Shown here in pieces: positions 10,213-54,528 of a stretch of 64,000 bases of DNA. The DNA is taken from NCBI RefSeq assembly GCF_023910625.1, contig NZ_JAAVVW010000003.1, positions 1,860,001-1,924,000 on the forward strand. The letters are read 5' to 3'. The position numbers and the translations under genes are program-made. The notes beneath the pieces were generated by a model, which made no database searches, had not been told where the DNA came from, and saw only the letters and a list, made by a program, of their open reading frames with translations. This stretch comes from Limnohabitans sp. (GTDB lineage Bacteria > Pseudomonadota > Gammaproteobacteria > Burkholderiales > Burkholderiaceae_C). The first letter of the stretch is position 1, and every line of letters begins with the position of its first letter.

Positions 10213-10217
10213 CGTCT

Positions 10218-12449: not shown

Positions 12450-12474
12450 CAAACGCTGTTTCTTTATCAATATG

Positions 12475-12504: not shown

Positions 12505-12544
12505 GCTTAGGGGGGCCAAGACCGTGGCCTTGGTGACCGGCGGC

Positions 12545-20098: not shown

Positions 20099-20102
<4 letters not shown>
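19515..20102 (+). CDS. rfbC: dTDP-4-dehydrorhamnose 3,5-epimerase
   Basis: 195 residues of the RmlC cupin family: RGFFFESFN, VQDNHSRS, the catalytic-His motif RGLHYQ, DVAVDIR, and PPGFAHGF in the barrel. It converts dTDP-4-keto-6-deoxyglucose to the rhamnose-configured keto sugar. The usual partners RmlA, RmlB and RmlD are absent from this window, so either they are elsewhere or the enzyme serves another deoxy sugar. It is GC-rich like core genes. Its stop overlaps the next start in ATGA. Confidence 0.9.
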
Positions 20103-22951
<2,849 letters not shown>

Positions 22952-22955
<4 letters not shown>

Positions 22956-28079: not shown

Positions 28080-28907
28080 ATGTGGCTATTGCGCGGTCAT
28101 CTACAAGCACTTAAAGAGGCATACCTCATATTATTACGTCATCGCCAACTGACATTAGAGATGGCTAGACGAGAAGTGTCGGATCGTTACGTTGGCCAAG
28201 CCTTTGGCGTGATATGGGCGGTGGCGCACCCGATATTCATGATGGGTCTTTACGTTTTTATTTTCGCTTTTGTATTTAAGACAAGGATTGGTAATACGGT
28301 TGAGATGCCCCTTGACTACACCACTTATCTACTTTCTGGACTCTTGGCTTGGATGGGATTTCAAGAGACAATGGCTAAAAGCTGCACCGCTATTACTGGA
28401 AATGCAGCGCTAGTTAAGCAAGTAGTATTTCCGCTCGAAATATTGCCTGTCAAGGGGGTAATAGTCTCGGTTTTCCAGCAGGGAATTTTGACAGCCTTAT
28501 TGGTACTCTATGTGCTGGCCACCAACGGCAAACTCCCTTGGACTTATTTTTTACTACCCATACTTTTCACTTTACAGGCTATTGCCATGATGGGCATTGC
28601 GTACTTGCTGGCCGCTGTCGGCACGTACTTTCGCGACATGAAGGACTTCATTCAATTATTTGTCACGGCAGGCGTTTATTTGCTGCCGATTTTTTATCTT
28701 CCGTCGTGGGTGCCAAGTCTATTCAAACCATTGCTATATATAAATCCATTTAGTTACTTAATTTGGTGCTATCAAGATGTCTTGTACTTTGGTCGCATCG
28801 AGCATCCTTGGGCTTGGGCCGTCAACACGGCCGTTAGTTTGATGGTTTTTGTACTTGGTTACCGATTGTTTCGAAGACTGAAGCCGACTTTCGGTAATAT
28901 TTTGTAA
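28080..28907 (+). CDS. wzm: O-antigen ABC exporter, membrane subunit (Wzm)
   Basis: 275 residues, ABC-2 permease. The N-terminal amphipathic stretch contains [20 protein letters not shown], followed by about six membrane spans (for example [20 protein letters not shown]). It forms the inner-membrane channel for an undecaprenyl-linked polysaccharide. It starts 1 bp after the amidotransferase and is followed by its ATPase. Base composition becomes more AT-rich from here. Confidence 0.92.
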
Positions 28908-36176: not shown

Positions 36177-37265
36177 TGTCGCATCCCGGATGATTGCATT
36201 GACTCAAAACGGTATCCGTTGTTCATGGCCAGAGAGGTCATGCGGCAGTTGATAGACAATCTTTGCGACACCTCAGCAGTCCACCCGGGAGCCTTGTCAT
36301 GATGATTGCCTTGCACAAAAACGCACGTACTACGCCCGCCACCCGTGCGGAGATGGCAGCCAGCACGGAGACTGCTGCCACTTTGGCGTTGCGCTTCGGC
36401 GTGAGTGAAGGCACTGTTTACAAGTGGAAGGGTCGAGACAGCTTTCATGACGCGTCCCACACCCCGCACAAGCTTCAAACCACGCTCACACCGGCGCAAG
36501 AACAGATCGTGGTCGAACTCAGAAAGACGCTGCTGTTGCCCCTGGATGATTTGCTGGCCGTCACCCGCGAGTTTCTTTGCCCCCAGGCCACACGCTCGGG
36601 TCTGGACCGTTGCTTGCGTCGCCACGGCGTTGGCAACCTCAACGCGCTCAGGCCCAAAGAGCCCACTGAGCCTCATAAAGCCTTCAAAAGCTATGAGCCG
36701 GGGTTCATCCACATCGATGTCAAATACCTGCCCCAGATGCCCGACGAGACCAGCAGGCGCTATCTGTTTGTGGCCATCGACCGCGCCACACGCTGGGTGT
36801 TTGTGCAGATCAAGAGCCACAAGACGGCAGCGGCAGCCCGAGCGTTTCTCAATGCCCTGCACAAGGCGTGCCCGATCAAGATGCAGAAAATTCTGACCGA
36901 CAACGGCAAGGAGTTCACTGACAGGTTGTTTGCCAGCCGTGAGCGCCAGGCCACGGGCAACCATGAGTTTGATCAACTGTGCCAAGCCTTGAACATTGAA
37001 CACCGCCTGACCAAACCACGCACGCCGCGCACCAATGGCATGGTCGAGCGCTTCAACGGGCGTATCGCTGATGTGCTCAAGACACACCGATTCACCAGCG
37101 GTGAAGATTTGGAGCAAACGCTCATGCGTTACGTGGCTCTGTACAACCATCAGTTACCCCAGTCAGCGCTTAAAAGCAAAACACCGATGAGGGCCATGAA
37201 AGACTGGTACGCTTCTCATCCCCATTTGTTTATAAAAAGGCCTTACGATCATCCGGGATGCGACA
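36177..37265 (+). mobile_element. IS481-type insertion sequence, copy 1
   Basis: 1089 bp bounded by an 18-bp perfect inverted repeat, TGTCGCATCCCGGATGAT on the left and its complement ending in ATGCGACA on the right. It is flanked by the 6-bp direct repeat ATTAGG (36171-36176 and 37266-37271), which proves a simple insertion. It is about 99% identical to the copy at 38570-39658. It encodes one transposase, whose stop codon lies in the target duplication. Confidence 0.93.
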
Positions 37266-38569: not shown

Positions 38570-39658
38570 TGTCGCATCCCGGATGATTGCATTGACTCAA
38601 AACGGTATCCGCTGTTCATGGCCAGAGAGGTCATGCGGCAGTTGATAGACAATCTTTGCGTCACCTCAGCAGTCCACCCGGGAGCCTTGTCATGATGATA
38701 GCCTTGCACAAAAACGCACGTACTACGCCCGCCACCCGTGCGGAGATGGCGGCCAGCACGGAGACTGCTGCCACTTTGGCGTTGCGCTTCGGCGTGAGTG
38801 AAGGCACTGTTTACAAGTGGAAGGGTCGAGACAGCTTTCATGACGCGTCCCACACCCCGCACAAGCTTCAAACCACGCTCACACCGGCGCAAGAACAGAT
38901 CGTGGTCGAACTCAGAAAGACGCTGCTGTTGCCCCTGGATGATTTGCTGGCCGTCACCCGCGAGTTTCTTTGCCCCCAGGCCACACGCTCGGGTCTGGAC
39001 CGTTGCTTGCGTCGCCACGGCGTTGGCAACCTCAACGCGCTCAGGCCCAAAGAGCCCACTGAGCCTCATAAAGCCTTCAAAAGCTATGAGCCGGGGTTCA
39101 TCCACATCGATGTCAAATACCTGCCCCAGATGCCCGACGAGACCAGCAGGCGCTATCTGTTTGTGGCCATCGACCGCGCCACACGCTGGGTGTTTGTGCA
39201 GATCAAGAGCCACAAGACGGCAGCGGCAGCCCGAGCGTTTCTCAATGCCCTGCACAAGGCGTGCCCGATCAAGATGCAGAAAATTCTGACCGACAACGGC
39301 AAGGAGTTCACTGACAGGTTGTTTGCCAGCCGTGAGCGCCAGGCCACGGGCAACCATGAGTTTGATCAACTGTGCCAAGCCTTGAACATTGAACACCGCC
39401 TGACCAAACCACGCACGCCGCGCACCAATGGCATGGTCGAGCGCTTCAACGGGCGTATCGCTGATGTGCTCAAGACACACCGATTCACCAGCGGAGAAGA
39501 TTTGGAGCAAACGCTCATGCGTTACGTGGCTCTGTACAACCATCAGTTACCCCAGTCAGCGCTTAAAAGCAAAACACCGATGAGGGCCATGAAAGACTGG
39601 TACGCTTCTCATCCTCATTTGTTTATAAAACGGCCTTACGATCATCCGGGATGCGACA
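38570..39658 (+). mobile_element. IS481-type insertion sequence, copy 2
   Basis: 1089 bp with the same inverted repeats (TGTCGCATCCC at 38570; ATGCGACA ending 39658). Flanks are AATAAC on the left and GCTACT on the right: no target duplication. That fits an adjacent deletion or recombination between copies rather than a simple insertion. It differs from copy 1 at only a handful of positions, such as GGTGAAGAT versus GGAGAAGAT in the transposase. Confidence 0.93.
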
Positions 39659-39666: not shown

Positions 39667-41239
39667 TAATAATGAGATAACAAGAATAAGGACAAAAATA
39701 TACGAAAACTCAAATTATATTATAAATTATTTATATTCGATGTTGACTGGAGGAGTGCTTCCTGTTTTGTCGCTATTTTTTTTAGTGGTAAAGTCTAAAG
39801 GGAGATATTTATTTCTACTGCTGTCATTAATTTATGTTGGAAGTTTCATTCAAAAGGCTCCGGTTTTATTAATTGGATTCCCGATTATTGTTTATTTGGT
39901 AATTTTTAAAAAATATAAATTTATATTATTTTATTTAAGTTCAACAATATTGGCTTTTATGATGATACATTTTAATTTAAATGGATATTTATCTCATAAA
40001 ACTAAATTTGTAAGTAGTGCAGAAGCTTCCATTGGTGTAGAGCCTAAAATTCATGATAAATGGTACATGCTTAAATTCGATAAAGGATCAGGGTGGCGTG
40101 ATGCTAGTTTTTATAAGGACGATAATCAAGTATCTCTGAATAACCAAAATTTTTATAATTCAAATAAAGCTCTCTATGCATTTTATGACGATAGCTTTAA
40201 TTTGGGAAGAAATTTTTTTGCAACAGAATTTTCATTGATGGTGGAGGATGATTTTAGTTGCAATGATTATAGTACTTTGTTTTATATGGGAGGGGTGAGT
40301 GGTTGGTCTGGTGTTTTTCAGATATTGCTTAAATGTGATCAAAAAAAGAAAATATATTTAGAATTTGCTTTGATTGATGGAAGTGGTAATGAAGGTTTTG
40401 GATTTAAAAGTCAGTATTTGAATAGGGGGCAAGAGAATAAAATTTATTTTGAGAGATTAGAAGATCATGCAAAAATAAGCGTAAACGGATCAGTAGATAA
40501 AATTCCAAGTAAAATCTTTAATTTAACAGTGCCTCAAGGAATTAAAAAAATAATTCAATTTGGAGCTCAGTTTGGCGGTGGTTCACGAAGTCAAGGTGAG
40601 GGATTACTTCGTGGTATACACATAAACACTTTCTCACTTGAAATTATTAATGAGAATAATAGTAAAAATATTATTATAGACTATGAAAAAATATTTGAGG
40701 AATCAAAAATATCGGTAAGCGATGAATTTACTGTAACTCCTTACTTGTTGATTTCTGGGAATATTGGTAATCTTATAGACAGGTTTTTATTTGTTCCTGG
40801 TCGAACAGGGGCGATTTGGATTGATTTAATACCTGAAAAAATACCTTACGGATTAGGTTGTGGTTATAAACCGATTGCAGTTATTATAGACTGTAAATTC
40901 ATAAATTTTCCTGTTGTAATTCATCAATATGTAGAAGTAGAAATGTGGGAGAATGGTATAAAAGGCACCATGAATTCAGCAGAAATTTTTAATGGTTATG
41001 CGAATTTTGGTATATGGGGGGCTTTTATTGTTGGCGTAGTCATGGCATGTTGGATTTTTATAATATCAATAGTTTTTAAAAATTATCAAATATTCGGTTT
41101 TGCTTCAATGGCTCCATTTATAATTATGCAATCTTCTGTTGGATTACCTGTTAGTTTGGTAAGCGGAGGATGGTTATTTTCTGTTGCCTTATTTTTATTT
41201 TTGCGACGATATTTGCCGCTTGAAAAATTGAAAGATTGA
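39659..41239 (+). pseudogene. O-antigen polymerase-like membrane protein (Wzy-like), apparently 5'-truncated
   Basis: 499 codons from ATG 39740, but the same frame is open back to the IS edge at 39659, has no ribosome site, and begins inside a hydrophobic segment. The left end therefore looks cut off by IS copy 2. Two membrane spans (VLPVLSLFFLVV; VLLIGFPIIVYLVIF) are followed by a ~300-residue extracytoplasmic region containing a beta-rich, LamG/lectin-like stretch (about residues 150-310), then a few C-terminal spans (WGAFIVGVVMACWIFIISIV). Very AT-rich and unlike flanking core DNA. Wzy assignment is by topology and position, so tentative; a short functional protein is possible. Confidence 0.6.
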
Positions 41240-41244
41240 ATCGT

Positions 41245-43074
41245 ATGTGTGGTATTGCTGGTTTCATAAAAAAATCATCATCATTTGAATCACGTCTTGT
41301 TATCAATATGATGACAGACTTGATTTCACATCGTGGCCCAGATGGTTCGGGTTCTTACATCGATGGACAAGTTGTTTTTGGTCATAGGCGATTATCAATA
41401 ATTGATTTATCAAATGATGGTCATCAACCTATGCATCACGTCTGTGGTCATCTTGTTATTACATACAATGGAGAAATATATAATTATCTTGAAATTAGAG
41501 AGGAGTTAATATCTAAAGGGCATTACTTCCGTTCTGCTTCAGATACTGAAGTCATACTAGCGGCATATTTGGAATGGGGGGTATCTTGTGTTGATAAATT
41601 TAATGGTATGTGGGCATTTGCCATACATGATAAAAAAAATAATATAATTTTTTGTTCTCGCGATAGATTTGGTGTGAAGCCATTTTATTACATTGATGTC
41701 GATTCCGGTTTTTATTTTGGTTCCGAAATCCGTCAATTATTGCCATTTTTAAAGGAAATTAAATCAAATAATAAGCTTCTTACTGATTTTTTGCTAACTA
41801 GTATTAGTGATCATACGGATGAAACATTTTATAAGGGTATTTCAAAGTTGCCTGCAGGACATAATTTAATATATAGACTTGATGAAAATAAATTCGAAAT
41901 AAATCGGTTTTATGAATTGCATAGTAATGTTGAATTAAGATCTCTATCGCCTGAAGATGCGACAGATCTATATCGTTCGCGTTTGGAAGAGTCAGTTAAA
42001 CTCCGGTTGCGTGCGGATGTTCCTGTTGGGACTTGTCTGAGTGGTGGTTTAGACAGTTCTTCTATCGCTTCAATTGCTGGACCTATTTATAAACGGGCTT
42101 CTGGTCTAAATTTTAGTGCTATTACTGCTATCAGTGAGCAAGAGAGTAATGACGAATCAGCTTATGCTAAAAAAGTAGTTGATCATTCCAACTTGAATTG
42201 GTTGCAAGTTAAACCAAGTTATCAAGACTTTGTGGATTCTCTTCCTTCTGTTGTGAAATCACAAGAGGAGCCTTTTGGGAGTACTTCCTTAACTATGCAA
42301 TACTTTGTGATGAAGGAGGCTCGAAAGCAACGAATTCCTGTTCTTTTGGATGGGCAGGGCGGTGATGAGACTTTGCTGGGTTATCCCAAGTATTACGGGA
42401 GTTATTTGGCTTCATCTTTTAGAGAAGGCGGAGCTTCGTCGTTTCTTCGTGCATTAAAAGATGCAGGCACAAATAACAGCAAAATGTCATTAGCAAATGC
42501 TATGTTTTTTTTGGTCGGTGGTCTTGTAGCGCCTGCACGTTATTTGGTTTATTTATCAAGAAGTCGTTACCTGGCTAAAATTCCAGCATATCCTCAGCAC
42601 TTAACTGATTTTGCAAGAAAGTCATTAGATGATTTTGAATTGCAAAAACTTGAGATTACAAATACCAATTTGCCTGTCTTGTTAAGGTATGAGGACAAGA
42701 ACTCAATGGCGCATTCGATTGAGACACGATTGCCTTTTTTAGATTATCGCGTCGTTGAAACTGCTTTGTCATTGCCAAGAGATTGCAAGATTCGAGGTGG
42801 ATGGTCGAAATGGGTATTGCGAAATGCAATGGATGGCCGTATGCCGCCAGAAATTACTTGGCGTAAAAATAAATTTGGCTTTGAAGCTCCAGAAAATATG
42901 TGGATGAAAAATCATTTATCTGTAATGAAGGATGCTGTTATTAATTCTTCTTTAATTTGTGATTTAACAAAAAAAAGCCATCTTGCAAAAAGTTTTGATG
43001 AATTAAATATGCGCGTACAGTGGAGACTTTACAGCATTGCATTGTGGCAAAAAGAATTTGGTATTGTGGGTTAA
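41245..43074 (+). CDS. Asparagine synthase-like amidotransferase (second copy)
   Basis: 609 residues starting at ATG 41245 so that Cys follows Met (MCGIAGFIKK), as the glutaminase mechanism needs; the frame also opens three codons earlier at TTG. Motifs RGPDGSG, FGHRRLSIIDLS, ATP loop SGGLDSSSIAS and ETRLPFLDYRVVE are present. AT-rich, and clearly diverged from the copy at 26198, so it was acquired with this block rather than recently duplicated. Probably amidates a uronic acid of the glycan (inference). It sits just after the polymerase-like gene. Confidence 0.9.
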   Translation: MCGIAGFIKKSSSFESRLVINMMTDLISHRGPDGSGSYIDGQVVFGHRRLSIIDLSNDGHQPMHHVCGHLVITYNGEIYNYLEIREELISKGHYFRSASDTEVILAAYLEWGVSCVDKFNGMWAFAIHDKKNNIIFCSRDRFGVKPFYYIDVDSGFYFGSEIRQLLPFLKEIKSNNKLLTDFLLTSISDHTDETFYKGISKLPAGHNLIYRLDENKFEINRFYELHSNVELRSLSPEDATDLYRSRLEESVKLRLRADVPVGTCLSGGLDSSSIASIAGPIYKRASGLNFSAITAISEQESNDESAYAKKVVDHSNLNWLQVKPSYQDFVDSLPSVVKSQEEPFGSTSLTMQYFVMKEARKQRIPVLLDGQGGDETLLGYPKYYGSYLASSFREGGASSFLRALKDAGTNNSKMSLANAMFFLVGGLVAPARYLVYLSRSRYLAKIPAYPQHLTDFARKSLDDFELQKLEITNTNLPVLLRYEDKNSMAHSIETRLPFLDYRVVETALSLPRDCKIRGGWSKWVLRNAMDGRMPPEITWRKNKFGFEAPENMWMKNHLSVMKDAVINSSLICDLTKKSHLAKSFDELNMRVQWRLYSIALWQKEFGIVG

Positions 43075-43076
43075 AG

Positions 43077-44192
43077 ATGATTCGTATTTGTCATCTATCT
43101 TCAGTGCATCCGGCTGATGATGTCCGTATCTTTCATAAGGAGTGCATCACATTAGCGGGATATTCAGATTGGGAAGTTCATTTTGTAGGTAACGGCCCCT
43201 TGGACGTGGGTCAAACTGGTGTGATTTTTCATCCGTTGCCCCCGTTTGCTCATGGGCGTTTCCTGAGGATGTTGCTGCGGGGCTGGCAGGGTTATTGGAT
43301 GGCTCGCAGTGTGGACGCTGATATTTACCATTTTCATGATCCTGAATTATTACCCTGGGGATGGTTGCTCAAAATTCAAGGAAAAAAAGTCATTTATGAC
43401 GCTCATGAAGATGTTCCACGCGACATATTAACTAAGTCATGGATTCCACGCGCGTTACGTCAATTCGTTGCATCAACAACTGAGCTGATTGAAAATTTTA
43501 TAACTCGCAAACTTGATTTGGTTGTGACCGCTACTCCATTTATCAGAGATCGTTTTTTGTCAGTTGGGGTCAATGCCGTTGTTTTAAATAATTACCCTAA
43601 AATTTCCGAATTAGGTAGTTCTATTCATGCTGTACAGCATGGTCATCCATCAGTTTGCTACACCGGCGCTATCATGGCTGAACGCGGTGCACATGAGATG
43701 GTTGAAGCTTTGACATTTGCTGGCATTCAGCTTCAATTGGCTGGAAGTTATTCGCCAGGATCATTGCGTTCAAATTTGATGTCATTAAAAGGATGGCAGT
43801 ATGTGAATGAACTAGGATTGGTAAAACGCGACCGCTTGCCGGAGATTTTTTCAACCTCAATTGCTGGGTTGGTTCTTTTCCATCCTGTTCCAAATAATGT
43901 CAATTCTCAACCTAATAAGTTATTTGAGTATATGTCTGCAGGCATACCTATAGTTTGCTCTGACTTTCCATTGTGGCGTCACCTTATCGAATCTGTTGGC
44001 TGTGGAATTTGCGTAGATCCTTTAAATACTGATGAAATTGGTGGTGCGATACGCTGGATGATCGAGCATCCGCACGAGGCAAGAGCAATGGGCGCTCGTG
44101 GTGCTCGTGCCGTTCGTGATCGATTTAACTGGGAGACTGAGGCAGGTAATTTGGTTCAAGCTTATCGGATTATTGCAAATCAATTAATATGA
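43077..44192 (+). CDS. Glycosyltransferase family 4
   Basis: 371 residues from ATG 43077, 2 bp after the amidotransferase stop; the upstream extension of the frame is shadow. N-terminus ICHLSSVHPADDVRIFHKE, acceptor-domain YDAHEDVPRD, donor-domain PNNVNSQPNKLFEYMSAGIP with the family Glu motif and the tail NWETEAGNLVQAY. Retaining GT-B enzyme acting at the cytoplasmic face on the lipid-linked repeat unit. Donor unknown. Overlaps the acyltransferase gene by ATGA. Confidence 0.87.
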   Translation: MIRICHLSSVHPADDVRIFHKECITLAGYSDWEVHFVGNGPLDVGQTGVIFHPLPPFAHGRFLRMLLRGWQGYWMARSVDADIYHFHDPELLPWGWLLKIQGKKVIYDAHEDVPRDILTKSWIPRALRQFVASTTELIENFITRKLDLVVTATPFIRDRFLSVGVNAVVLNNYPKISELGSSIHAVQHGHPSVCYTGAIMAERGAHEMVEALTFAGIQLQLAGSYSPGSLRSNLMSLKGWQYVNELGLVKRDRLPEIFSTSIAGLVLFHPVPNNVNSQPNKLFEYMSAGIPIVCSDFPLWRHLIESVGCGICVDPLNTDEIGGAIRWMIEHPHEARAMGARGARAVRDRFNWETEAGNLVQAYRIIANQLI

Positions 44193-46180
44193 CCGAATTG
44201 CAATATCGCGCTGACATTGATGGATTGAGAGCTGTCGCTGTATTGGGTGTTGTTCTCTTTCATGCTGGACTACCTTGGTTACCTGGTGGGTTTATAGGTG
44301 TAGATATTTTCTTTGTTATTTCCGGTTACTTAATTACTGGAGTTCTGGTCAGAGACATTCAAAATGGCGATTATTCACTGTTGAATTTTTATCTAAGAAG
44401 ATTTAAGAGAATCCTGCCTGCTTTATTTTTTGTATTAGTTTTTTCTGGATTTATTTCTTGGTTTTATTTACTGCCCCAAGAGCTAGTACAATATGCTCGG
44501 CAGATGATGGCAAGTCTATTTTTTGTTTCTAATATTTTATTTTTTAAAGAATCAGGTTATTTTGATGTTGCATCTGATTTTAAACCGTTGCTACATACTT
44601 GGTCTCTTTCTGTAGAGGAGCAGTTTTATATCGTTTGGCCTCTTGCGCTTGCACTGGGTGTTAGGCATCCAAAGGTATTTAGATTTTTTCTTTTAACTGC
44701 TATCTCAGTGTCATTCTTTTGGGCTTGTGCGAGTGTGGTAGAGAAGCCATCGCAGGTCTTTTATCTTATTCAAGGACGTGCTTGGGAGCTTCTTTTAGGT
44801 GCAGCGCTTGTATTGTTTCCTCGTACTCTTGAATGTCGATTATTTTTTCGTCATATCATTTCTGTATTAGGATTAATTGCTATTTTTTACGGTTATATAT
44901 GTCTTTCAAAAGACTTTGTTTTTCCAGCATGGAATGCACTTTGGCCTTGTTTAGGTGCGGTAATGATTATCATGGCGGGTAAGGATGCAGTGATTAATCG
45001 TCATGTTTTATCTTGTAAGCCTATTGTCTTTGTTGGCCTGATTTCGTATTCATTTTATCTATGGCATTGGCCATTGTTGACTTTGCTGCGTATCAAGCAC
45101 CTGGGTGATATGCCAACTTTGTCTTCTTTGGTATTAGTATTGTTGTCATTTATGCTGGCGATACTAACCTGGCGATATGTTGAGCAGCCTCTCCGTCATG
45201 CCGGAGTTTCTTGGCGTTCTTCCGTGCTACTTACTCTTTATGCTGTGGTCACTCTTGCGTTGTTTTCATTGGCATTTTCAGTCAAATTTTCCAATGGATT
45301 TCCTTCTCGTTTGTCTCAGGAAGTTATTGCTGCGAAAAACGCGTCGGGTGATGTTAATAGTGCACGGTCTATTTGTCATTTGGGGGTGGAGGGAACTGAT
45401 GTGCCTCAAAGTCCCTTGTGTTTAACAGGTCTTAAAAATCGACTACCCACTGTTCTGGTTTGGGGTGATTCTCATGCGGAAGCTTTGCTGCCTGGGATAG
45501 CAGGGACTTCTTTTTTTGCGGGTCAAACAGTTCAGCAAATGACAAAAACCAGTTGTCCACCATTGTTGGGTGTAGACATCTTTCGAGGCCGTGATGTTTA
45601 TTCTGACTGTAGATTATTCAACCAAGCGGTGATTCGATGGCTGTCGACCGATGAAGCCGCGAGTATTGATACGGTCATTTTGACGGCGCGCTGGTCTGTT
45701 TATGCGTTGGAATCGGGGTACGGATTGCCGGATGAAATATCACGTGTTCCAACACACGCTTTGGTTAGTGGAGCTCATCAAATTTCGGGCTTGCGTGCAC
45801 TTGATGTAGGGTTGGGAGAAACTTTAAATTCACTCAAGAATGCGGGCAAAAAATCTTTTATTGTTGCTTCAGTGCCAGAAATGCGTGTTGATGTTCCTTC
45901 GTGTCTTGCACGAAAAAGGATGATGAAAGAAGAAGAACAGGATTGTGGACTTTCAAAGGCTTTGGTGTCGTCGCGGTTATCACAACTGGAAAAGTCATTT
46001 GCTTCTGTAGAAAATCTTCATGATGTAAAAGTTGTGTTTCCTTCTCGCGTTCTTTGCCCTCAGGGTATGTGCCTTGTCACAGATGATCATGGCCAGTCTT
46101 TGTATTACGACCATAACCATTTGTCTGCCTCGGGAGCTAATTGGTTAGCACAACGTTTATTCACTGGAGTCATGCCATGA
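44189..46180 (+). CDS. Acyltransferase 3 with SGNH domain (OafA/OatA-like)
   Basis: 663 residues. The AT3 membrane domain begins YRADIDGLRAVAVLGVVLFH and holds about 10-11 spans to residue ~370. A periplasmic SGNH-hydrolase-like domain follows, with VLVWGDSHAEALLPG (Gly-Asp-Ser) and the C-terminal Asp/His pair in DHNHLSASG. Such two-domain proteins O-acetylate O-antigen or other envelope sugars. Its stop overlaps the flippase start in ATGA. Confidence 0.92.
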   Translation: MTELQYRADIDGLRAVAVLGVVLFHAGLPWLPGGFIGVDIFFVISGYLITGVLVRDIQNGDYSLLNFYLRRFKRILPALFFVLVFSGFISWFYLLPQELVQYARQMMASLFFVSNILFFKESGYFDVASDFKPLLHTWSLSVEEQFYIVWPLALALGVRHPKVFRFFLLTAISVSFFWACASVVEKPSQVFYLIQGRAWELLLGAALVLFPRTLECRLFFRHIISVLGLIAIFYGYICLSKDFVFPAWNALWPCLGAVMIIMAGKDAVINRHVLSCKPIVFVGLISYSFYLWHWPLLTLLRIKHLGDMPTLSSLVLVLLSFMLAILTWRYVEQPLRHAGVSWRSSVLLTLYAVVTLALFSLAFSVKFSNGFPSRLSQEVIAAKNASGDVNSARSICHLGVEGTDVPQSPLCLTGLKNRLPTVLVWGDSHAEALLPGIAGTSFFAGQTVQQMTKTSCPPLLGVDIFRGRDVYSDCRLFNQAVIRWLSTDEAASIDTVILTARWSVYALESGYGLPDEISRVPTHALVSGAHQISGLRALDVGLGETLNSLKNAGKKSFIVASVPEMRVDVPSCLARKRMMKEEEQDCGLSKALVSSRLSQLEKSFASVENLHDVKVVFPSRVLCPQGMCLVTDDHGQSLYYDHNHLSASGANWLAQRLFTGVMP

Positions 46181-46510
46181 GATGGCCTGGTTGGTTTTAT
46201 GCCGTCTTGCGGAGACCATTTTGGGTTGTGTTGGGGGGCACTGGATTCGCACAAACTGTAGGGGTTCTAACATCTCCATTACTGACGCGTTTGTATACCC
46301 CTGAATCGTTTGGACTATTGACCATTTTTACGACCATGATGGGTTTGGTAGGGTCGGTTATTGGTGGTCGCTATGAGTATGCGATTGCTGGTGAATCAGA
46401 TCAGCGTCAAGCGAATGTCTTGCTAGGTCTAGTTGGGTTGATTTCATGTCTTGTGGCCTGTCTTTTGGCATTAGTGATTTGGTTTCCTCCTGATTTTATT
46501 CCTCCTAACT

Positions 46511-47836
46511 CAGTAGTGTCCCAACGTTTTTCAGAGGAGAGAGAGCTGTTGAGGCTCAAATTCCGAATGTTTGTCAGGCTCGGTTGGTGTAAGTAGTTGA
46601 TTTATTGGGGTTGTTTCAAACATGGTCAAGCTCAAGATTTGTAGGATTTCATGAAGACTGTTGGGCAGATGCAAGCGTTTCTTGGCAATGGCGATCAGCA
46701 CGTATGTGCAGACCGCGATCCAGATTTGCGTCTTGACCGCGTTCTCGTTGGTGCCATAAAACGTCTTGATTCGCAGGTGCTGCTTGATCCATTTGAAAAA
46801 CAACTCGACCTGCCAGCGCTGGCGATACAGGTCTGCAATCAACTCGGGCTTGAGAGCGAAGTTGTTGGTCAAAAATGTGATGCGCTTGCCAGTGTCGTCC
46901 TTGACCACCACACGTCGCAGCGTGGCGGGATAGTGTTGGCTGGAATAAAAGATGGTCAGCACACCCGTCTGATCGCACACGATGTTCGAGTTGGCCCGGT
47001 CTACGGGGTTGGAGTAGCGCCGCTTGAATTTGGTATTGGACTTGGCACGGGTGACGAAGAAGGCGTTGGCCTGATGAATCACAAACAGTCGCTGGAAATC
47101 CAAGTACCCACGATCGAGCAGGTAATAGGCGCCAGGCTCGATGTCCAGCAGGTCCAAGGTGTTGACCTCGTGGGTCTTGCCGTCGCTGATGTGAATGAAG
47201 GTGGGGATGGAGCCGCGCAGGTCCAACAGGGTGTGCAGTTTGATAGCCGCCTTGTGCGCGCGAAACGGTGCCCACGGATAAACCGACAAGCACAGGTCTA
47301 TCGTCGTGGCATCGAAGGCGTAGACGGTTGCATCCAAGTCGATCGCCATCGGCTCTTTGGCATACAACGGGCGCGCCATGGCGATCAGGTGTTGCGCGAA
47401 GTCGGCGTAGATTTGCCAAGGCCGGGTTGCATTGGCGTTGGACAAGGTGTTGCGAGAAACTGTCTTGCAGCGCAGACCCATGTGATACAGCCGCTTGGCT
47501 TGGGCACGCAAATTGATCTCGATGTCGCGCAAAGACTCGCGGTAGGTCAACTGAGCAAAGGCCATGGCCAAGAACTGGTCCAAGCAGGTGAAGTCTTGAA
47601 CCTTGTGATCGCCTCGGTGCTTGGCAACGCAGCGGCGAAACGTGCTCAGCGGCAAGAACGCCATGAGTTGAGAAAAAACGAGCTTGCCTTGGTTCATTGC
47701 GGTCCTTTGCGTGCGAACGCAAAAGACCATAAGTCATGGAATCGAAGTTCAAATCGAGACCAGACTGAAATGCCAAAAAACCAAGGTAAATCATTAACTT
47801 ACGAAGTCCTGATGTGAAAACGTTGGGACACTACTG
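46511..47836 (-). mobile_element. IS4-type insertion sequence in wzx
   Basis: 1326 bp with a perfect 20-bp inverted repeat (CAGTAGTGTCCCAACGTTTT at the left, its complement ending at 47836). Flanked by the direct repeat CTCCTAACT at 46502-46510 and 47837-47845. The transposase is encoded on the minus strand. GC-rich compared with the AT-rich gene it interrupts, and apparently intact, so the insertion looks recent. Confidence 0.93.
46531..47697 (-). CDS. IS4-family transposase
   Basis: 388 residues from MNQGKLVFSQ; an in-frame ATG 11 codons earlier (47730) is less typical. The IS4 core is visible: YAFDATTIDL (first Asp region), LLDRGYLDF (second Asp) and the YREK-type segment YRQRWQVELFFKWIKQHL with the catalytic Glu. 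Complete, with no frameshift, so probably active. Confidence 0.92.
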   Translation of the reverse strand: MNQGKLVFSQLMAFLPLSTFRRCVAKHRGDHKVQDFTCLDQFLAMAFAQLTYRESLRDIEINLRAQAKRLYHMGLRCKTVSRNTLSNANATRPWQIYADFAQHLIAMARPLYAKEPMAIDLDATVYAFDATTIDLCLSVYPWAPFRAHKAAIKLHTLLDLRGSIPTFIHISDGKTHEVNTLDLLDIEPGAYYLLDRGYLDFQRLFVIHQANAFFVTRAKSNTKFKRRYSNPVDRANSNIVCDQTGVLTIFYSSQHYPATLRRVVVKDDTGKRITFLTNNFALKPELIADLYRQRWQVELFFKWIKQHLRIKTFYGTNENAVKTQIWIAVCTYVLIAIAKKRLHLPNSLHEILQILSLTMFETTPINQLLTPTEPDKHSEFEPQQLSLL

Positions 47837-48342
47837 CTCCTAACTATCTACAAATTTGGCCTGCATTATCACTCGCTTGTGTTGGCTATGTTGTTGGTGT
47901 TGCAGGTAATAACTGGATGGTGCGGCATGGAGCATTCCCTTTTGCTACAGGATTAAAAGTATTCCGTGTTTTGGCAACTTTGTTTTTCTCTTTGTGTTTT
48001 CTTGGCTTGGTAATTGGCTTGGTTTGGGCCGCTGCCTTGGCCTATGTTCTTTCAGCAGTACTGGTTTTTTACGCTTGTTCACAAAGAGGGTGGTCTATTA
48101 AAAAAATTAGTCAGATTGAAATTTTTAATGTAGCTAGAACACATGTGAAATTTCCAGCTCAGAGTGCCTTGCCTGCTTTTTTCGATAATTTGAGTATGCT
48201 GATCCCCGTCTATTTGGCCACATCACTTTATGGTGCTGATGATGTCGGGCAATGGGGTTTAACTCGGATGGTTTTGGCTTTGCCAATGGCCATGATCGCG
48301 GGTGCCATGGCACAAGTGTTGATGAAAAAGTTACATGATATG

Positions 48343-49716
48343 TTAGTGCAACATCCTTTCTGTAATTTCCCCGAGCATTGAACCTGGCAGTTCTCGGTTC
48401 TGGGAATTTTTTATACTGGCCCCGCCAGGCCGCCGGAGGCCCCCCACGGGACTCACGACAGAAAGAAATATCATGCCCCAACGAACCAACCTCGAAGAAG
48501 TTTCTCACCCTCTGCATGAAGCCTATGCATGCCTACTCTCCAACGGCCTGGATGGCGCAGGCGAAGCCCTGCGCATTCTGGTCAACGAAGCCTCTCGCAT
48601 TGAACGCGCCCAGCATTTGCAGGCAATGCCTTATGAGCGCAGCGCCCAGCGCATTGACCAGGCCAATGGCTTCAAGCCCAAGACCGTCCTCACCCGGATG
48701 GGCGAGATCACCTTTGAGGTGCCCCAGGTGAGGTCCGGAGGTTTTTACCCCAGCGCCCTGGAGCGCGGTAGTCGCTCGGAGCAGTCCGTCAATCTGGCGC
48801 TGGCCGAGATGTATGTCCAAGGCGTGTCCACCCGCAAGGTGATCGAAGTGCTGCAAAAGCTGGTGGGGCCTGAGGTCAGCATCTCCTCGAGCCAGATCAG
48901 CCGTTGCGCCGAGAAGTTGGATATCGGACTTGAAGCCTGGCGCAACCGCCCGCTGGAGGAGACACCCTACGTGCTACTGGATGCGCGCTATGAGCGCGTA
49001 CGTGAAGCAGGCCAAGTGGTGGACTGCGCCGTATTGGTGGCCGTGGGCGTCACCGCCAGCGGTCACAGACGCGTGTTGGGTGTATCGGTAGCGCTGTCCG
49101 AGGCTGAAGTGCACTGGCGCGAGTTTCTGGACAGTTTGATCAAGCGCGGCCTACGTGGGGTCAAGTTCATTGCCAGCGATGACCATGCGGGCTTGAAGGC
49201 GGCACGCAAAGCCATGTTTGCTGGCGTTCCATGGCAGAGATGCCAGTTTCACCTGCAGCACAACGCGCAAGGCTATGTTTCCAAACTCGATCAACGCGCG
49301 CCCGTGGCGCGCACGATTCGTTCGATCTTCAACGCACCGGACGTCAACGAAGCGAACCGCTTGCTGAGCTTGGCGCTGGAGGGCTGGCGTAAAGAGCACC
49401 CCAAACTGGCAACGTGGGCTGAAGAGAATTTGGCTGAAGGCTTTGCGGTTTTTGGCTTGCCGCCCGAGCACCGGGTGCGCATGCGCACGACCAATGGGGT
49501 GGAGCGCCTGAACAAGGAGATCAAACGTAGAACACGGGTCGCCACCTTGTTCCCCAATTCAGCGAGCTGCCTGCGACTGGTGAGCGCCATCCTGGCAGAA
49601 CAAGATGAGGAGTGGATGACTGCAAAAATCTATCTGACCATGAAGCCCTGATTCGGCGCATTGCGCAACAGCGCAGAACCAGTTCGTGGAATTTACAGAA
49701 AAGAAGTTGCTTTATC
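48343..49716 (+). mobile_element. IS256-type insertion sequence in wzx
   Basis: 1374 bp. The termini form an imperfect inverted repeat (left GCAACATCCTTTCTGTAATT against right complement GCAACTTCTTTTCTGTAAAT) and the element is flanked by the 9-bp direct repeat CATGATATG at 48334-48342 and 49717-49725. This duplication length fits the IS256 family. The ends are drawn from the duplication, so they could shift by a base or two. Confidence 0.88.
48473..49651 (+). CDS. IS256-family (Mutator-type) transposase
   Basis: 392 residues. Seen: YVQGVSTRKVIEVLQKLVG (helical DNA-binding region), YVLLDARYERVR with the first catalytic Asp, FIASDDHAGLKAA with the second, the zinc-like CQFHLQHN motif, and TTNGVERLNKEIKRR with the catalytic Glu. 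Intact. Lies on the same strand as the interrupted flippase gene. Confidence 0.94.
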   Translation: MPQRTNLEEVSHPLHEAYACLLSNGLDGAGEALRILVNEASRIERAQHLQAMPYERSAQRIDQANGFKPKTVLTRMGEITFEVPQVRSGGFYPSALERGSRSEQSVNLALAEMYVQGVSTRKVIEVLQKLVGPEVSISSSQISRCAEKLDIGLEAWRNRPLEETPYVLLDARYERVREAGQVVDCAVLVAVGVTASGHRRVLGVSVALSEAEVHWREFLDSLIKRGLRGVKFIASDDHAGLKAARKAMFAGVPWQRCQFHLQHNAQGYVSKLDQRAPVARTIRSIFNAPDVNEANRLLSLALEGWRKEHPKLATWAEENLAEGFAVFGLPPEHRVRMRTTNGVERLNKEIKRRTRVATLFPNSASCLRLVSAILAEQDEEWMTAKIYLTMKP

Positions 49717-50156
49717 CATGATATGGTGGTTGTTAAGGAAAGCATCAATAATTTTCTGATTTCTGTTTGCATCAAGTTTGCTATACCGTTGGTTGTGTTG
49801 GGTTTACTGATGATTTGGTTGGGTGTGCCCGTTTTTAGTTTACTTTTCGGAGAGCGTTGGGCGTATGCCGGCGCGTTGTCCGCTTGGCTTGTGTGGGCCT
49901 ATGCAATCAATGTTATTTGTTCAATGTTCAGTGTTATTTTTATAGTTCTAAGGAAATTGATTTTGAACGGTATATGGCAATTGTTGCATTGTGCTGCTAT
50001 TTATCTTGTGTTTGTAATTTTTCCTCCCGATAATTTTATAAATTTTATTCAAATATTTGTATTGATTGAAGTCATTTCGTATAGTATTTATGCTGTTCTC
50101 GTTTATATGACGTGCTATCGGTACAGTAAAGAAATTAAAAAGTTGATTTAAGCCGT

Positions 50157-51404
50157 ATGACCCACAATATTTGGTACTTGCACCCTTATGCTGGGGGGCC
50201 AGGATTCGGAAACAGTGCTCGAGCTTATCACATATCCTTAGCTTGGATTAAAGCTGGTCAACGAGCGACCGTGTTTTGTTCATCTTGGCACCATTTGATG
50301 GGACGTGATGTTGAATTCGTTGGGTCGCTAATATTTGAAGATGTCCCTTATTCGTTTGTACCTGCTCGCGCTTATATTGGTAATGGTGCTTCCAGATTAT
50401 TGAATATGTTTGATTACTGTATGGGCCTTTGGCGTAAAGCTGACCAGTATTCGTTGGATTTTGGCCAGCCCACCATGATTGTGGTTTCTTCTCCACACCC
50501 TTACGCTATTTTGATAGGAAAATTGCTGGCTAAACGTTGGCGGGCTAAATTGGTGTTTGAGGTACGTGACATCTGGCCTTTGAGCTTGGTTGAGCTTGCA
50601 GGTGTGTCTAAGTGGCATCCATTGGCTATGTTAACTGGTTGGGTTGAGCGTTTTGCATACAGAAATTCAGATGCTTGTGTTTCGCTTTTGCCCGGTGCCA
50701 AGTCGCATATGGTGGAGCGTGGCTTACCCTTAAATCGTTTCCACTACATACCCAACGGAGCAGCCTTGTCAGCCGCGCAGTTGCAGACTGTCGCTTTAGC
50801 TACGCCTGCACTTAACAAGGTTCGTCTGTTGAGAGATGATGGGCGTTTTGTGGTTATTTATCCCGGAGCCATGGGGCCTCCTAATAACATGCTTCCTTTG
50901 ATCGAAGCGGCTCATTTATTGAGTGCGAAAATTGGCCAAGCGGTTCATTTCGTATTGATGGGCCAAGGGGGTGAAATACCTGCCCTTAAAGAAAGAGTCA
51001 GGCATTTTGGGTTGACTACGGTTCACTTCTTTCCTCAATCAAACAGACAAGTAGCCTTGGCTTTGATGAGCATGGCGTCTGCAGGCTATGTGTCAGTAAG
51101 GCGGTTGCCCATTTATCGGCACGGTATTAGCTTCAACAAACTTTTTGAATATATGCAACAAAAATTACCTGTTATTTTCGCAGCTGATGTGCCCGGCAAC
51201 CCGGTTGAGCTTGCTGGATGCGGGGTTATAACTTCACCTGACGATCCTGTATTGATTGCCAATGCCATCTACAGTTTGTCTAAAAAATCATCAAGTGATC
51301 TAGCGTCCATGGGTCAGGCAGGAAGGTCGTTTGTTGAACGTCACCATGATTACACAGTCCTGGCAGCTGAATACTTGCAATTATTTGAACATAAGTCCTC
51401 ATGA
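50157..51404 (+). CDS. Glycosyltransferase family 4 (WbuB-like)
   Basis: 415 residues. N-terminus IWYLHPYAGGPGFGNSARAY, the segment FEVRDIWPLSLVELAGVSKW typical of WbuB-like amino-deoxysugar transferases, IPNGAAL, and the donor-site HGISFNKLFEYMQQKLP. Most likely adds the second sugar (for example an N-acetyl-fucosamine-type residue) on the undecaprenyl carrier, a guess from family resemblance. It begins 5 bp after the flippase stop and overlaps the next gene by ATGA. Confidence 0.87.
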   Translation: MTHNIWYLHPYAGGPGFGNSARAYHISLAWIKAGQRATVFCSSWHHLMGRDVEFVGSLIFEDVPYSFVPARAYIGNGASRLLNMFDYCMGLWRKADQYSLDFGQPTMIVVSSPHPYAILIGKLLAKRWRAKLVFEVRDIWPLSLVELAGVSKWHPLAMLTGWVERFAYRNSDACVSLLPGAKSHMVERGLPLNRFHYIPNGAALSAAQLQTVALATPALNKVRLLRDDGRFVVIYPGAMGPPNNMLPLIEAAHLLSAKIGQAVHFVLMGQGGEIPALKERVRHFGLTTVHFFPQSNRQVALALMSMASAGYVSVRRLPIYRHGISFNKLFEYMQQKLPVIFAADVPGNPVELAGCGVITSPDDPVLIANAIYSLSKKSSSDLASMGQAGRSFVERHHDYTVLAAEYLQLFEHKSS

Positions 51405-51964
51405 TGAAAAGATTTTTAGATGTTTTTTTTGTAATTTTTGCTGGGATTTTTTTGTTAATTCCTATTTTGGTAGTTAGTGTGGCTGTCAAAGTCACATCGG
51501 CAGGACCTGTTTTTTATTGGTCTGATAGGGTGGGTCGGTATAACACGATATTTCAAATGCCTAAATTCCGAAGCATGCTTGTGGGCACGCCTGCGGTAGC
51601 AACGCATCTGCTGTCGAATCCGAACACTTATTTGACACCAATAGGATCGTTCTTGCGTAAGAGTAGCTTGGATGAGTTGCCACAACTTTGGAGTATTTTG
51701 GTTGGAGATATGAGTTTCGTTGGTCCACGACCAGCTCTATTTAATCAGGATGATTTGGTCGCTTTACGTTCTAGCTATGGTGTTGATGCTTTGGTGCCAG
51801 GGTTAACGGGTTGGGCTCAGGTTAATGGACGTGACGAATTGCCTATTCCTGAAAAAGTGGCGCTGGATGTACAGTACTTGCAACGAAAAAATATGTTTTT
51901 TGATTTGCGAATTTTGTGGCTTACTTTCGTGAAAGTTGTCCAGCGTGATGGCGTTTCGCATTGA
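51401..51964 (+). CDS. Initiating phosphoglycosyltransferase (PglC-like sugar transferase)
   Basis: 187 residues, monotopic bacterial sugar transferase. One N-terminal membrane segment (DVFFVIFAGIFLLIPILVVS), then KFRSMLVG, SSLDELPQLWSILVGDMSFV and GPRPALF, and the tail LVPGLTGWAQVNGRDELP. It transfers a sugar-1-phosphate to undecaprenyl phosphate and so starts the repeat unit. This is the short form without the extra N-terminal spans of WcaJ/WbaP. The next gene starts inside its stop codon. Confidence 0.93.
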   Translation: MMKRFLDVFFVIFAGIFLLIPILVVSVAVKVTSAGPVFYWSDRVGRYNTIFQMPKFRSMLVGTPAVATHLLSNPNTYLTPIGSFLRKSSLDELPQLWSILVGDMSFVGPRPALFNQDDLVALRSSYGVDALVPGLTGWAQVNGRDELPIPEKVALDVQYLQRKNMFFDLRILWLTFVKVVQRDGVSH

Positions 51965-52551
51965 TCAAGTTGTCGTTTGTGCTCGATAAACCTTGTTTGT
52001 TGATTGTGGGTGCTGGTGGCCATGGACGTTCAGTGGCCGATAGTGTCTTGTTGTCAGATGATTATCATCTTGTCGGCTTTATAGATGATGGTGCCTTTTT
52101 GCGTGGTGAAAATGTATGGGATTTTCCGGTAATTGGGCCTGCTGCGGGATTCGCTGATTACAAAGAAATCGCATCACATGTAATTGTTGCTATTGGATCC
52201 AATTCATTACGTCAGCGTCTTTCATTTGAATTGACGGAAGCCGGTTTTGTACTGCCTAGTTTGATACATCCTCGTGCGACGGTTTCATCTCGAGCAGTTT
52301 TGGGTGCGGGGACTGTGGTCATGGCTGGTGCTGTAGTTGGTACGGAGGCTTCATTGGGCCTTGGCGTTATCGTTAACTCTGGTGCAGTGGTAGACCATCA
52401 TGCTCAGGTGCATGATTTTGCGCATTTAGGTGTCAACGCATCAATGGCGGGAGGGAGTGTTTTGGGGGCTTGCTCTTGGCTGCAGGCTGGTACAGCCATT
52501 GGTTATGGCGTCAAAGTGGCGCGTGATACCGTATTGTCTGTAGGGGATTGA
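51961..52551 (+). CDS. Sugar O/N-acetyltransferase (PglD/NeuD-like)
   Basis: 196 residues. N-terminal nucleotide-binding half LLIVGAGGHGRSVADSVL, then a left-handed beta-helix with hexapeptide repeats (HPRATVSSRAVLGAGTVVMAG, VNSGAVVDHHAQVHDFAHLG). In PglD the His of DHHAQVHDFAHLG is catalytic. Probably acetylates a UDP-4-amino-sugar. Start TTG 51961 overlaps the previous stop (TTGA); GTG 51979 is an alternative. Confidence 0.88.
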   Translation: MIKLSFVLDKPCLLIVGAGGHGRSVADSVLLSDDYHLVGFIDDGAFLRGENVWDFPVIGPAAGFADYKEIASHVIVAIGSNSLRQRLSFELTEAGFVLPSLIHPRATVSSRAVLGAGTVVMAGAVVGTEASLGLGVIVNSGAVVDHHAQVHDFAHLGVNASMAGGSVLGACSWLQAGTAIGYGVKVARDTVLSVGD

Positions 52552-52575
52552 CTTGATATACGTGGATTTATTAAA

Positions 52576-54528
52576 TTGAGTGCAGATTTTTTAACGCAAT
52601 TTCTTCTTTTTTTGCCAAGACCGGCTAAGCGTGCTTTAGCTTTAGGCGCGGACGCCTTGGTCTGTGCCATGACGGTATGGATGGCGTTTAACTTGCGCAT
52701 GGAGTTCTGGACCGCTTGGTCGCCTGCGCATTTCACGGCATTTGCAGGTGCTGTGGCTCTTGCTTTGCCGCTGTTCATTGTGTTTGGCTTGTACCGGGCC
52801 ATCTTCCGGTATGCGGGTTTGCCTGCTTTGATGACCGTGTTGAAGGCGGTAGCACTCTACGCTGTTTTTTATTGTTTTGCGTTTACTGTGGTGGGCGTGC
52901 CCGGTGTGCCTCGCACCGTGGGCGTTTTGCAGCCGCTTTTGTTGTTGCTGGGCGTGACGTTGTCTCGCGCATTTGTGCGTTATTGGTTGGGCGGGATTTA
53001 CCAAAGCATTGTTGGCAAAGAGGACCAGCCCCGCGTGTTGATTTATGGTGCTGGTTCTGCCGGGCGGCAGTTGGCAGCGGCCCTGAAGACCAGCCCCGAG
53101 CTGGTGGTGGCGGGCTTGCTGGATGATGATGACCGTTTGCACGGGCAGGTGCTCAATGGCCTGAAGATTTATGACCCGGCAACTCTGGTGGCTTTGGTGG
53201 CCAAGCTGCGGGTGACGCAGGTGTTTTTGGCCTTGCCCTCTGCATCGCGTGCTCGGCGCAACGAAATTCTGGAGCTGGTGCGTGCAGCCCATGTGCAGGT
53301 GCGCACTTTGCCGGGCGTGATGGACTTAGCCCAGGGCAAGGTGCAGGTGTCTGACCTGAAAGAGCTGGACATTGAGGACTTGCTGGGTCGTGATCCGGTG
53401 CCGCCCAACCCACTGATGCTGGCCAAGAACATCACGGGCAAGGTGGTGATGGTGACCGGTGCGGGCGGCTCGATTGGATCGGAGCTTTGTAGGCAGATTG
53501 TCAAGTCGGGTCCATCGACGTTGCTCTTGGTGGAGCTGACGGAGTTTGCGTTGTATGCGATTGAGCATGAGTTGCAAAGCCGCATTCGTGAAGAGTCTGC
53601 AGTCGATGTGAAGTTGGTGCCTTTGCTGGCCAACGTGCGCGACGCCTCACGCATGGCAGAGATTTTGCGCACCTGGAAGCCGCACACGGTTTACCACGCA
53701 GCGGCCTACAAGCATGTGCCGCTGGTTGAACACAACCCGGCAGAGGGTGTGAAGAACAATGTGCTGGGCACTTTGACCACGGCCATGCAAGCAGCGGCGC
53801 ATGGCGTGAGTGATTTTGTGTTGATCAGCACCGACAAGGCGGTACGCCCCACGAATGTGATGGGCACCAGCAAGCGCTTGGCCGAGATGGTGTTGCAGGC
53901 CCAAGCGGCGGTGATGGAAGGGCAGAGGCAAGGGCCGGTTGGTAAGACGCGTTTCAGCATGGTGCGCTTTGGCAATGTTCTGGGTTCTTCGGGCTCAGTG
54001 GTGCCGCTGTTTCGCAAGCAGATCAAGGACGGTGGCCCGATCACCCTGACGGACGAGCGGATCACCCGCTACTTCATGACCATCCCCGAAGCGGCGCAGC
54101 TGGTGATTCAGGCCGGGGCCATGGCCAGTGGCGGTGATGTGTTTGTGTTGGACATGGGCGAGCCGGTGCGCATTGCCGATTTGGCCCGGCGCATGGTGGA
54201 GCTGTCGGGCTTGGCGCTCAAAGACGCGGCGAATCCGAATGGTGACATCGAGATCACCGTGACCGGCTTGCGCCCCGGAGAGAAGCTGTACGAAGAGCTG
54301 CTGATTGGTGACAACCCCTTGCCCACCAGCCACCCCCGCATCATGAAAGCCCACGAAGACTTTTTGCCGTGGGATGCCTTGCAGGCCAAGCTGTCTGACT
54401 TGGGTTTGGCGCTGGACGCTAACAACGTGCCCCTGATACGCACCTTGCTCAAGGATCTGGTACCGGGCTACCAGCCCGATGGTGAGGTGGTGGACTGGGT
54501 GTGGATGGAGAACGCACGCACGGCTTGA
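52576..54528 (+). CDS. UDP-GlcNAc 4,6-dehydratase (PglF/WbpM-like)
   Basis: 650 residues, starting at TTG 52576. Four N-terminal membrane spans (about 20-140), a first Rossmann region GAGSAGRQLAAAL, and a catalytic SDR domain with GAGGSIGSELCRQI, YHAAAYKHVPLVE, STDKAVRPTNVMGTSKR (the Met-for-Tyr variant of this family) and RFGNVLGSSGSV. It makes UDP-4-keto-6-deoxy sugars for QuiNAc/FucNAc-type residues. It closes the polysaccharide locus and has core-like GC. Confidence 0.93.
   Translation: MSADFLTQFLLFLPRPAKRALALGADALVCAMTVWMAFNLRMEFWTAWSPAHFTAFAGAVALALPLFIVFGLYRAIFRYAGLPALMTVLKAVALYAVFYCFAFTVVGVPGVPRTVGVLQPLLLLLGVTLSRAFVRYWLGGIYQSIVGKEDQPRVLIYGAGSAGRQLAAALKTSPELVVAGLLDDDDRLHGQVLNGLKIYDPATLVALVAKLRVTQVFLALPSASRARRNEILELVRAAHVQVRTLPGVMDLAQGKVQVSDLKELDIEDLLGRDPVPPNPLMLAKNITGKVVMVTGAGGSIGSELCRQIVKSGPSTLLLVELTEFALYAIEHELQSRIREESAVDVKLVPLLANVRDASRMAEILRTWKPHTVYHAAAYKHVPLVEHNPAEGVKNNVLGTLTTAMQAAAHGVSDFVLISTDKAVRPTNVMGTSKRLAEMVLQAQAAVMEGQRQGPVGKTRFSMVRFGNVLGSSGSVVPLFRKQIKDGGPITLTDERITRYFMTIPEAAQLVIQAGAMASGGDVFVLDMGEPVRIADLARRMVELSGLALKDAANPNGDIEITVTGLRPGEKLYEELLIGDNPLPTSHPRIMKAHEDFLPWDALQAKLSDLGLALDANNVPLIRTLLKDLVPGYQPDGEVVDWVWMENARTA

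What the first reader, a model, noticed from the sequence alone, without database searches (positions are those of the whole stretch)
46177..50151. O-antigen flippase gene split by two different insertion sequences with perfect target duplications
An IS4-type element (CTCCTAACT duplicated) and an IS256-type element (CATGATATG duplicated) sit in one gene. Removing both, with one copy of each duplication, restores a single 419-codon frame: 334 + 497 + 426 = 1257 nt. Two independent hits in one gene suggest selection for its loss, or relaxed selection after the first hit. This may be a rough or altered surface-glycan strain.
Basis: seen in the sequence. Interest (0 to 1): 0.75.

Follow-up and report, generated by a model that had tools for sequence, protein, structure and literature searches.

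The report
Glycan flippase gene broken by transposons
A bacterium's gene for a protein that moves sugar chains across its inner membrane has been cut into three pieces by two jumping genes, which probably changes its surface coat; this is a well-known kind of event.

Summary
A complete IS4-family element (46511-47836) and a complete IS256-family element (48343-49716), each flanked by a perfect 9-bp target duplication, split one gene into three in-frame pieces of 334, 497 and 426 nt. A profile of 14 intact Polysacc_synt_3 (Wzx-type) proteins, searched against the whole genome, gives just three matches at E <= 1: the three pieces, in order and without overlap. The gene is a Wzx-type flippase and almost certainly a null allele. 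Both elements look young. Two IS481 copies lie 7-10 kb upstream; one, without target duplication, abuts a candidate Wzy gene that may have lost its start. And the same cluster keeps a full-length Wzm/Wzt-type ABC exporter, so 'rough' does not follow. Loss of Wzx with earlier steps running is lethal in E. coli but a wzx deletion is tolerated in Pseudomonas protegens, which keeps another O-chain. Selection for loss is not shown. Insertion sequences in O-antigen genes are well described; interest is modest.

The parts
46177..46510 (+). Flippase gene, piece 1 (334 nt; ends in the first copy of the 9-bp duplication)
   Evidence: Profile A1 positions 33-127; 29-121 of another profile; weak Polysacc_synt_3 match
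46511..47836 (-). IS4-family insertion sequence, complete; transposase 46531-47730 on the minus strand
   Evidence: identical full copy elsewhere in the genome
47837..47845 (.). Second copy of the 9-bp duplication CTCCTAACT (first copy 46502-46510)
47846..48342 (+). Flippase gene, piece 2 (497 nt; ends in the first copy of CATGATATG)
   Evidence: Profile A1 positions 142-304; homologues in 48 of 399 family genomes, own included
48343..49716 (+). IS256-family insertion sequence, complete; transposase 48473-49651
   Evidence: 978 identical bases in a partial copy elsewhere
49717..49725 (.). Second copy of the 9-bp duplication CATGATATG (first copy 48334-48342)
49726..50151 (+). Flippase gene, piece 3 (426 nt with the stop)
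   Evidence: Profile A1 positions 324-435
39740..41239 (+). Candidate Wzy-like membrane protein, perhaps without its first part; no family match
   Evidence: Six hydrophobic segments; frame open back into the IS481 end; no match (other genomes)
36177..37265 (+). IS481-family element A, with 6-bp target duplication ATTAGG
38570..39658 (+). IS481-family element B, 7 differences from A, no target duplication
28080..28907 (+). Wzm-like ABC-2 membrane component
   Evidence: PF01061
28918..30168 (+). Wzt-like ATPase with Wzt C-terminal domain
   Evidence: PF00005 and PF14524
19515..25161 (+). Sugar-nucleotide genes: RmlC-like, then nucleotide-sugar dehydrogenase, oxidoreductase, acetyltransferase, aminotransferase and 2-epimerase
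41236..46180 (+). Asparagine-synthase-like gene, glycosyltransferase, OafA-like acyltransferase with SGNH domain
50157..54528 (+). Glycosyltransferase, initiating phosphoglycosyltransferase (PglC-like), PglD-like acetyltransferase, CapD-like dehydratase; all appear full length

Best explanation
[quoted passage not shown] Two separate, recent transpositions, one IS4-family and one IS256-family, each leaving a 9-bp duplication, split it into three parts (shown). No whole flippase can be made from it, so it is a null allele (inferred). The glycan that used it is no longer exported by it. The strain probably tolerates this because flux into the branch is off, or because a glycan is still exported by the Wzm/Wzt pair of the same cluster (inferred). 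The second hit most likely fell into an already useless gene (inferred; order of hits unknown).
For: Perfect 9-bp duplications and terminal inverted repeats; both transposases over the curated NCBIfam cut-offs. The pieces match in order on 17-member and 14-member profiles of intact homologues; all 14 members of A1 match Polysacc_synt_3. No other place in the genome matches A1 at E <= 1. The second full IS4 copy is 100% identical and has its own perfect duplication; the IS256 is identical to a partial copy over 978 bp. Intact relatives lie in similar clusters of genus members G440, G408 and G437. Wzm/Wzt-like genes in the cluster.
Against: Single-piece Pfam and NCBIfam scans give only a weak sub-threshold hit for piece 1 and no flippase hit for pieces 2 and 3, so the assignment rests on homologues of 22-35% identity. 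Piece 3 matches only 11 of 22 homologue loci at E <= 0.01. Loss of function and the role of Wzm/Wzt are not tested. The cost of flippase loss reported in E. coli speaks against easy tolerance with the initiating transferase intact.
Confidence: 0.82

Rival explanations
1. Loss of the flippase was positively selected, for example by phage or grazer pressure on the surface glycan, and at least the first hit is adaptive.
For: Two hits in one gene; IS hits in glycan genes that give phage resistance are described (titles and abstract starts in the listing, e.g. PMC9769513).
Against: No intact sister strain, no count of sequences or phage data; a second hit in a dead gene needs no selection. Insertion counts for three families chosen because they are in the window cannot test it.
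Confidence: 0.25
2. The insertions are a reversible on/off switch of the surface glycan.
For: Both transposase frames are open and the duplications are perfect.
Against: Two independent precise excisions would be needed; nothing in the sequence shows a switch.
Confidence: 0.04
3. Assembly error: repeat copies misjoined into an intact gene.
For: Identical copies exist elsewhere in the genome.
Against: Different, perfect 9-bp duplications at both elements are not expected from misjoins; the genome is held in 3 contigs, 100% complete, 0% contaminated. Reads were not available.
Confidence: 0.02
4. The pieces are still made as separate polypeptides that assemble into a working flippase.
For: All three pieces remain open and pieces 2 and 3 contain possible starts (ORFs 47917-48381 and 49612-50151).
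Against: Three-part reassembly of a Wzx-type protein is not something I know of (recall); the pieces end in element sequence.
Confidence: 0.02

Closest known systems
IS-disrupted O-antigen loci of Klebsiella pneumoniae O1/O2 (PMC7556023; abstract and outline seen)
   Same: Insertion sequences inside an O-antigen locus alter the predicted glycan.
   Different: There the abstract and section titles tell of hits in rfb regions, gmlB among them; here a flippase is hit by two families.
Pseudomonas protegens CHA0 wzx deletion (PMC10715155; passages seen)
   Same: A strain with more than one O-chain system loses the flippase.
   Different: Engineered deletion; the long O-chain stays. In the window the remaining glycan is unknown.
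E. coli wzx mutants and undecaprenyl-phosphate sequestration (PMC11813082 and PMC12826051; passages seen)
   Same: Loss of the flippase while earlier steps are present.
   Different: There lethal when the earlier steps run; P. aeruginosa wzx mutants select suppressors. Here the initiating transferase looks full length and the strain lives, for a reason not known.
Intact Wzx-type genes of genus members G440, G408, G437 and of Chromobacterium sinusclupearum (L088)
   Same: Same profile family and, in part, the same neighbour genes.
   Different: Uninterrupted open frames of 441, 450, 491 and 542 codons (the last from stop to stop).

Membership tests
Wzx-type flippase (MOP superfamily, Polysacc_synt_3) | Sequence match over the whole length to intact members | tested here: met
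   Three pieces cover 33-127, 142-304 and 324-435 of the 442-position profile; direct Pfam scan of single pieces stays below cut-off
Wzx-type flippase (MOP superfamily, Polysacc_synt_3) | About 12 membrane helices | tested here: inconclusive
   A crude hydropathy scan gives 2, 3 and 6 segments in the pieces, some overlapping
Wzx-type flippase (MOP superfamily, Polysacc_synt_3) | Lies in a glycan cluster with glycosyltransferases and an initiating transferase | tested here: met
Wzx-type flippase (MOP superfamily, Polysacc_synt_3) | Moves a lipid-linked glycan | not testable with these tools
   Needs biochemistry
IS4 family | DDE transposase, terminal inverted repeats, target duplication | tested here: met
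   NF033592 272 bits against cut-off 115; 20-bp repeats; 9-bp duplication
IS256 family | Mutator-type transposase, terminal inverted repeats, 8-9 bp duplication (length recalled) | tested here: met
   NF033543 340 bits against 150; repeats; 9-bp duplication
IS481 family | IS481 transposase and terminal inverted repeats | tested here: met
   Copy A: NF033577 263 bits against 224; 18-bp perfect repeats; copy B differs by 7 of 1089
O-antigen polymerase Wzy (39740-41239) | Match to a Wzy family | tested here: not met
   No Pfam or NCBIfam match; so it is called a candidate only
ABC O-antigen exporter Wzm/Wzt | ABC-2 membrane protein beside an ATPase with Wzt C-terminal domain | tested here: met
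   PF01061, PF00005, PF14524, all over cut-off

The most novel reading that the evidence does not exclude
The cluster is caught switching export route: three insertion-sequence families (IS4, IS256, IS481) are dismantling a Wzx/Wzy branch (flippase split twice, polymerase gene beheaded by an IS481-linked deletion) while a Wzm/Wzt exporter in the same cluster takes over, and the strain survives without the flippase, despite a full-length initiating transferase, by a way round lipid-carrier sequestration that has not been described.
Probability: 0.13. Interest if true: 0.5.

Novelty: new member of a known kind. Interest (0 to 1): 0.25.

Why it matters
It warns that naming this cluster a working Wzx/Wzy locus would mispredict the surface glycan. 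If the strain is healthy, it is a natural case for asking how a cell tolerates a missing flippase when the initiating transferase is still there, which is lethal in E. coli when the earlier steps run and selects suppressors in P. aeruginosa (passages).

Tried and rejected
Single-piece Pfam and NCBIfam scans were too weak; a profile of intact homologues was needed. PF01943 finds nothing in the own genome, not even the pieces, so it is no proof that other flippases are missing; the A1 search, which does find the pieces, is the better test. In named genome contigs, 85 stretches matched a pattern of piece 2 but none encoded a relative.

A composite transposon of the two IS481 copies was considered; A has its own target duplication and B has none, so I did not adopt it. 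Of the 8 full IS481 copies, 4 have a 6-bp duplication (A, L148, L149, L151) and 4 have none (B, L147, L150, L152); a search for swapped flanks among 12 of the 13 places found none. A clustering statistic for the insertions was rejected, because the families were picked for being in the window.

The candidate Wzy protein: the single-sequence fold was useless (mean pLDDT 40.7); no relative in 298 other family genomes, in plasmids, or among the 4564 open frames of 100 or more codons of 80 named loci; no convincing PDB sequence match. A PDB sequence search with A1 found only two chance-level hits.

Literature: of two papers holding both 'Limnohabitans' and 'O-antigen' and three, seen as listings only, none is about this by its title. 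PMC6128206 (passages) holds no mention of wzx and was not used as a precedent.

Rows dropped: of 22 homologue loci, 17 with open frames of 400-520 codons made the first profile (dropped L005, L007, L010, L012, L020); 14 of those 17 made A1 (dropped L013, L014, L019). The loci were chosen by piece 2, so only pieces 1 and 3 test collinearity independently: 21 of 22 and 11 of 22 loci at E <= 0.01.

Full report
What was claimed and what is there. The finding describes one gene at 46177-50151 split by two insertion sequences. Every coordinate holds. The IS4-type element is 46511-47836, with perfect 20-bp inverted repeats and CTCCTAACT on both sides; the IS256-type element is 48343-49716, with imperfect inverted repeats and CATGATATG on both sides. 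The three gene parts are 334, 497 and 426 nt, together 419 codons with the stop, and none has an internal stop in frame. Both transposases are over the curated cut-offs of their families (272 bits against 115 for IS4, 340 against 150 for IS256).

What the gene is. I kept the pieces apart throughout. Piece 1 alone has a weak, sub-threshold match to Polysacc_synt_3 and Polysacc_synt; pieces 2 and 3 have no flippase match. Piece 2 finds homologues in 48 of 399 genomes of the family, own included, and in 4 of 90 of the genus, own included, at 22-35% identity. Of the 48 matches in other genomes, 41 lie in open frames of 407-507 codons, the length of a flippase. Pieces 1 and 3, which had no part in choosing the loci, match the open frames of 21 and 11 of 22 loci read. 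On a profile of 17 of them the pieces fall in order at 29-121, 138-300 and 321-433 of 439. With a profile of 14 (A1) the own genome gives exactly three matches at E <= 1: the three pieces, at 33-127, 142-304 and 324-435 of 442. So no second gene of this kind was found. All 14 members match Polysacc_synt_3, 8 also Polysacc_synt, 2 also MurJ. One MurJ gene is present elsewhere. The gene is therefore a Wzx-type flippase, and the gaps between the matched stretches roughly equal the unmatched ends of the pieces, so little or nothing is missing at the junctions.

Setting. The cluster runs from about 19.5 to 54.5 kb: an RmlC-like gene and WbpA/B/D/E/I-like sugar genes (names by resemblance), a Wzm-like and a Wzt-like gene with the Wzt_C domain, methyltransferases, glycosyltransferases, a candidate Wzy gene, an asparagine-synthase-like gene, an OafA-like acyltransferase, the broken flippase, a glycosyltransferase, an initiating phosphoglycosyltransferase, a PglD-like acetyltransferase and a CapD-like dehydratase. 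In genus member G440 an intact flippase follows homologues of the four genes 19985-24076 directly, with homologues of the asparagine-synthase-like gene, the 2-epimerase and the 43056 glycosyltransferase beyond it. G408 has an intact flippase after homologues of the acetyltransferase and aminotransferase, G437 one near an asparagine-synthase-like gene. In named loci of Chromobacterium sinusclupearum (L088) and Vogesella oryzae (L087, flippase cut by the locus end) the flippase stands upstream of homologues of both window glycosyltransferases, with other genes between. Among all 80 named loci the profile found three matches, these two and a weak one in L065. In six genus members with a close CapD (G264, G400, G410, G399, G405, G409) the stretch read upstream of it held no match to the profile, and in G413 only a weak partial one. 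The locus is thus highly variable, and no near relative with an intact copy was found.

More lesions. Two IS481 copies, differing at 7 of 1089 positions, lie at 36177-37265 and 38570-39658. The first has a 6-bp target duplication, the second none. Of the 8 full copies in the genome, 4 have a 6-bp duplication and 4 have none, so rearrangement at these elements seems common here. The second copy abuts the candidate Wzy gene, whose frame stays open over the 27 codons up to the element and 10 codons into it; the protein has only 6 hydrophobic segments by a crude scan. A beheaded polymerase gene is plausible but not shown: Pfam, NCBIfam, plasmids, PDB sequences and other genomes of the family gave no relative, so even its being a Wzy is inference from place and shape.

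Age. A full second IS4 copy elsewhere in the genome is identical over 1326 bp and has its own perfect 9-bp duplication; the IS256 copy is identical over 978 bp to a partial copy. The gene parts show no further frame damage. Both hits look recent; their order is unknown.

Function. Loss of the flippase is the expected result. In E. coli, flippase loss with the earlier steps running is lethal through sequestration of undecaprenyl phosphate (passages of PMC11813082), and in P. aeruginosa it selects suppressors that stop O-antigen expression (passages of PMC12826051). On the other side, a wzx deletion of P. protegens CHA0 lives, loses the short O-chain and keeps the long one (passages of PMC10715155). 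Here the initiating transferase and the neighbouring glycosyltransferases appear full length, so either the branch is silent or a way round exists. The Wzm/Wzt pair makes continued export of some glycan possible; whether it handles the same glycan is unknown. A protein with the Wzy_C domain, of ligase or polymerase type, lies elsewhere in the genome (PF04932). 'Rough' is unproven.

Selection. Two hits in one gene do not tell selection from relaxed constraint, because after a first null hit the gene is a free target. I take relaxed constraint to be the likelier background of the second hit.

Organism. The best named relatives of the CapD protein are mostly Comamonadaceae and other Burkholderiales.

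Known or new. Insertion sequences in O-antigen genes are well described (abstract of PMC7556023; listing). This is a further case; two families in one flippase gene is a neat but not surprising feature.

Noticed in passing
36177-37265 and 38570-39658: Two near-identical IS481 copies flank a glycosyltransferase-like gene (37408-38490); copy B has no target duplication.
   Followed up: partly
39740-41239: Very AT-rich (30.5% G+C) membrane protein gene with a long, strand-rich middle part in a poor model and no known relatives; perhaps the left-over of a Wzy polymerase gene.
   Followed up: partly
18535-18752: 218-bp remnant of an IS481 left end, 92% identical, just before the glycan cluster.
   Followed up: no
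L138 (G000:C3:1715205-1716182): A 978-bp piece of the IS256 element, cut at one end, is flanked on both sides by AAAAATCC, as if a shortened element had transposed.
   Followed up: no
8773-17866: A long RTX-repeat protein gene (1772 aa, 22 matched repeat stretches) beside an ABC exporter with C39 peptidase domain and an HlyD-like gene, all on the minus strand: a probable type I secretion set.
   Followed up: no
G000:C3:209160-209576: A second, partial CapD-like stretch, 74% identical, with a stop inside: probably a remnant.
   Followed up: no
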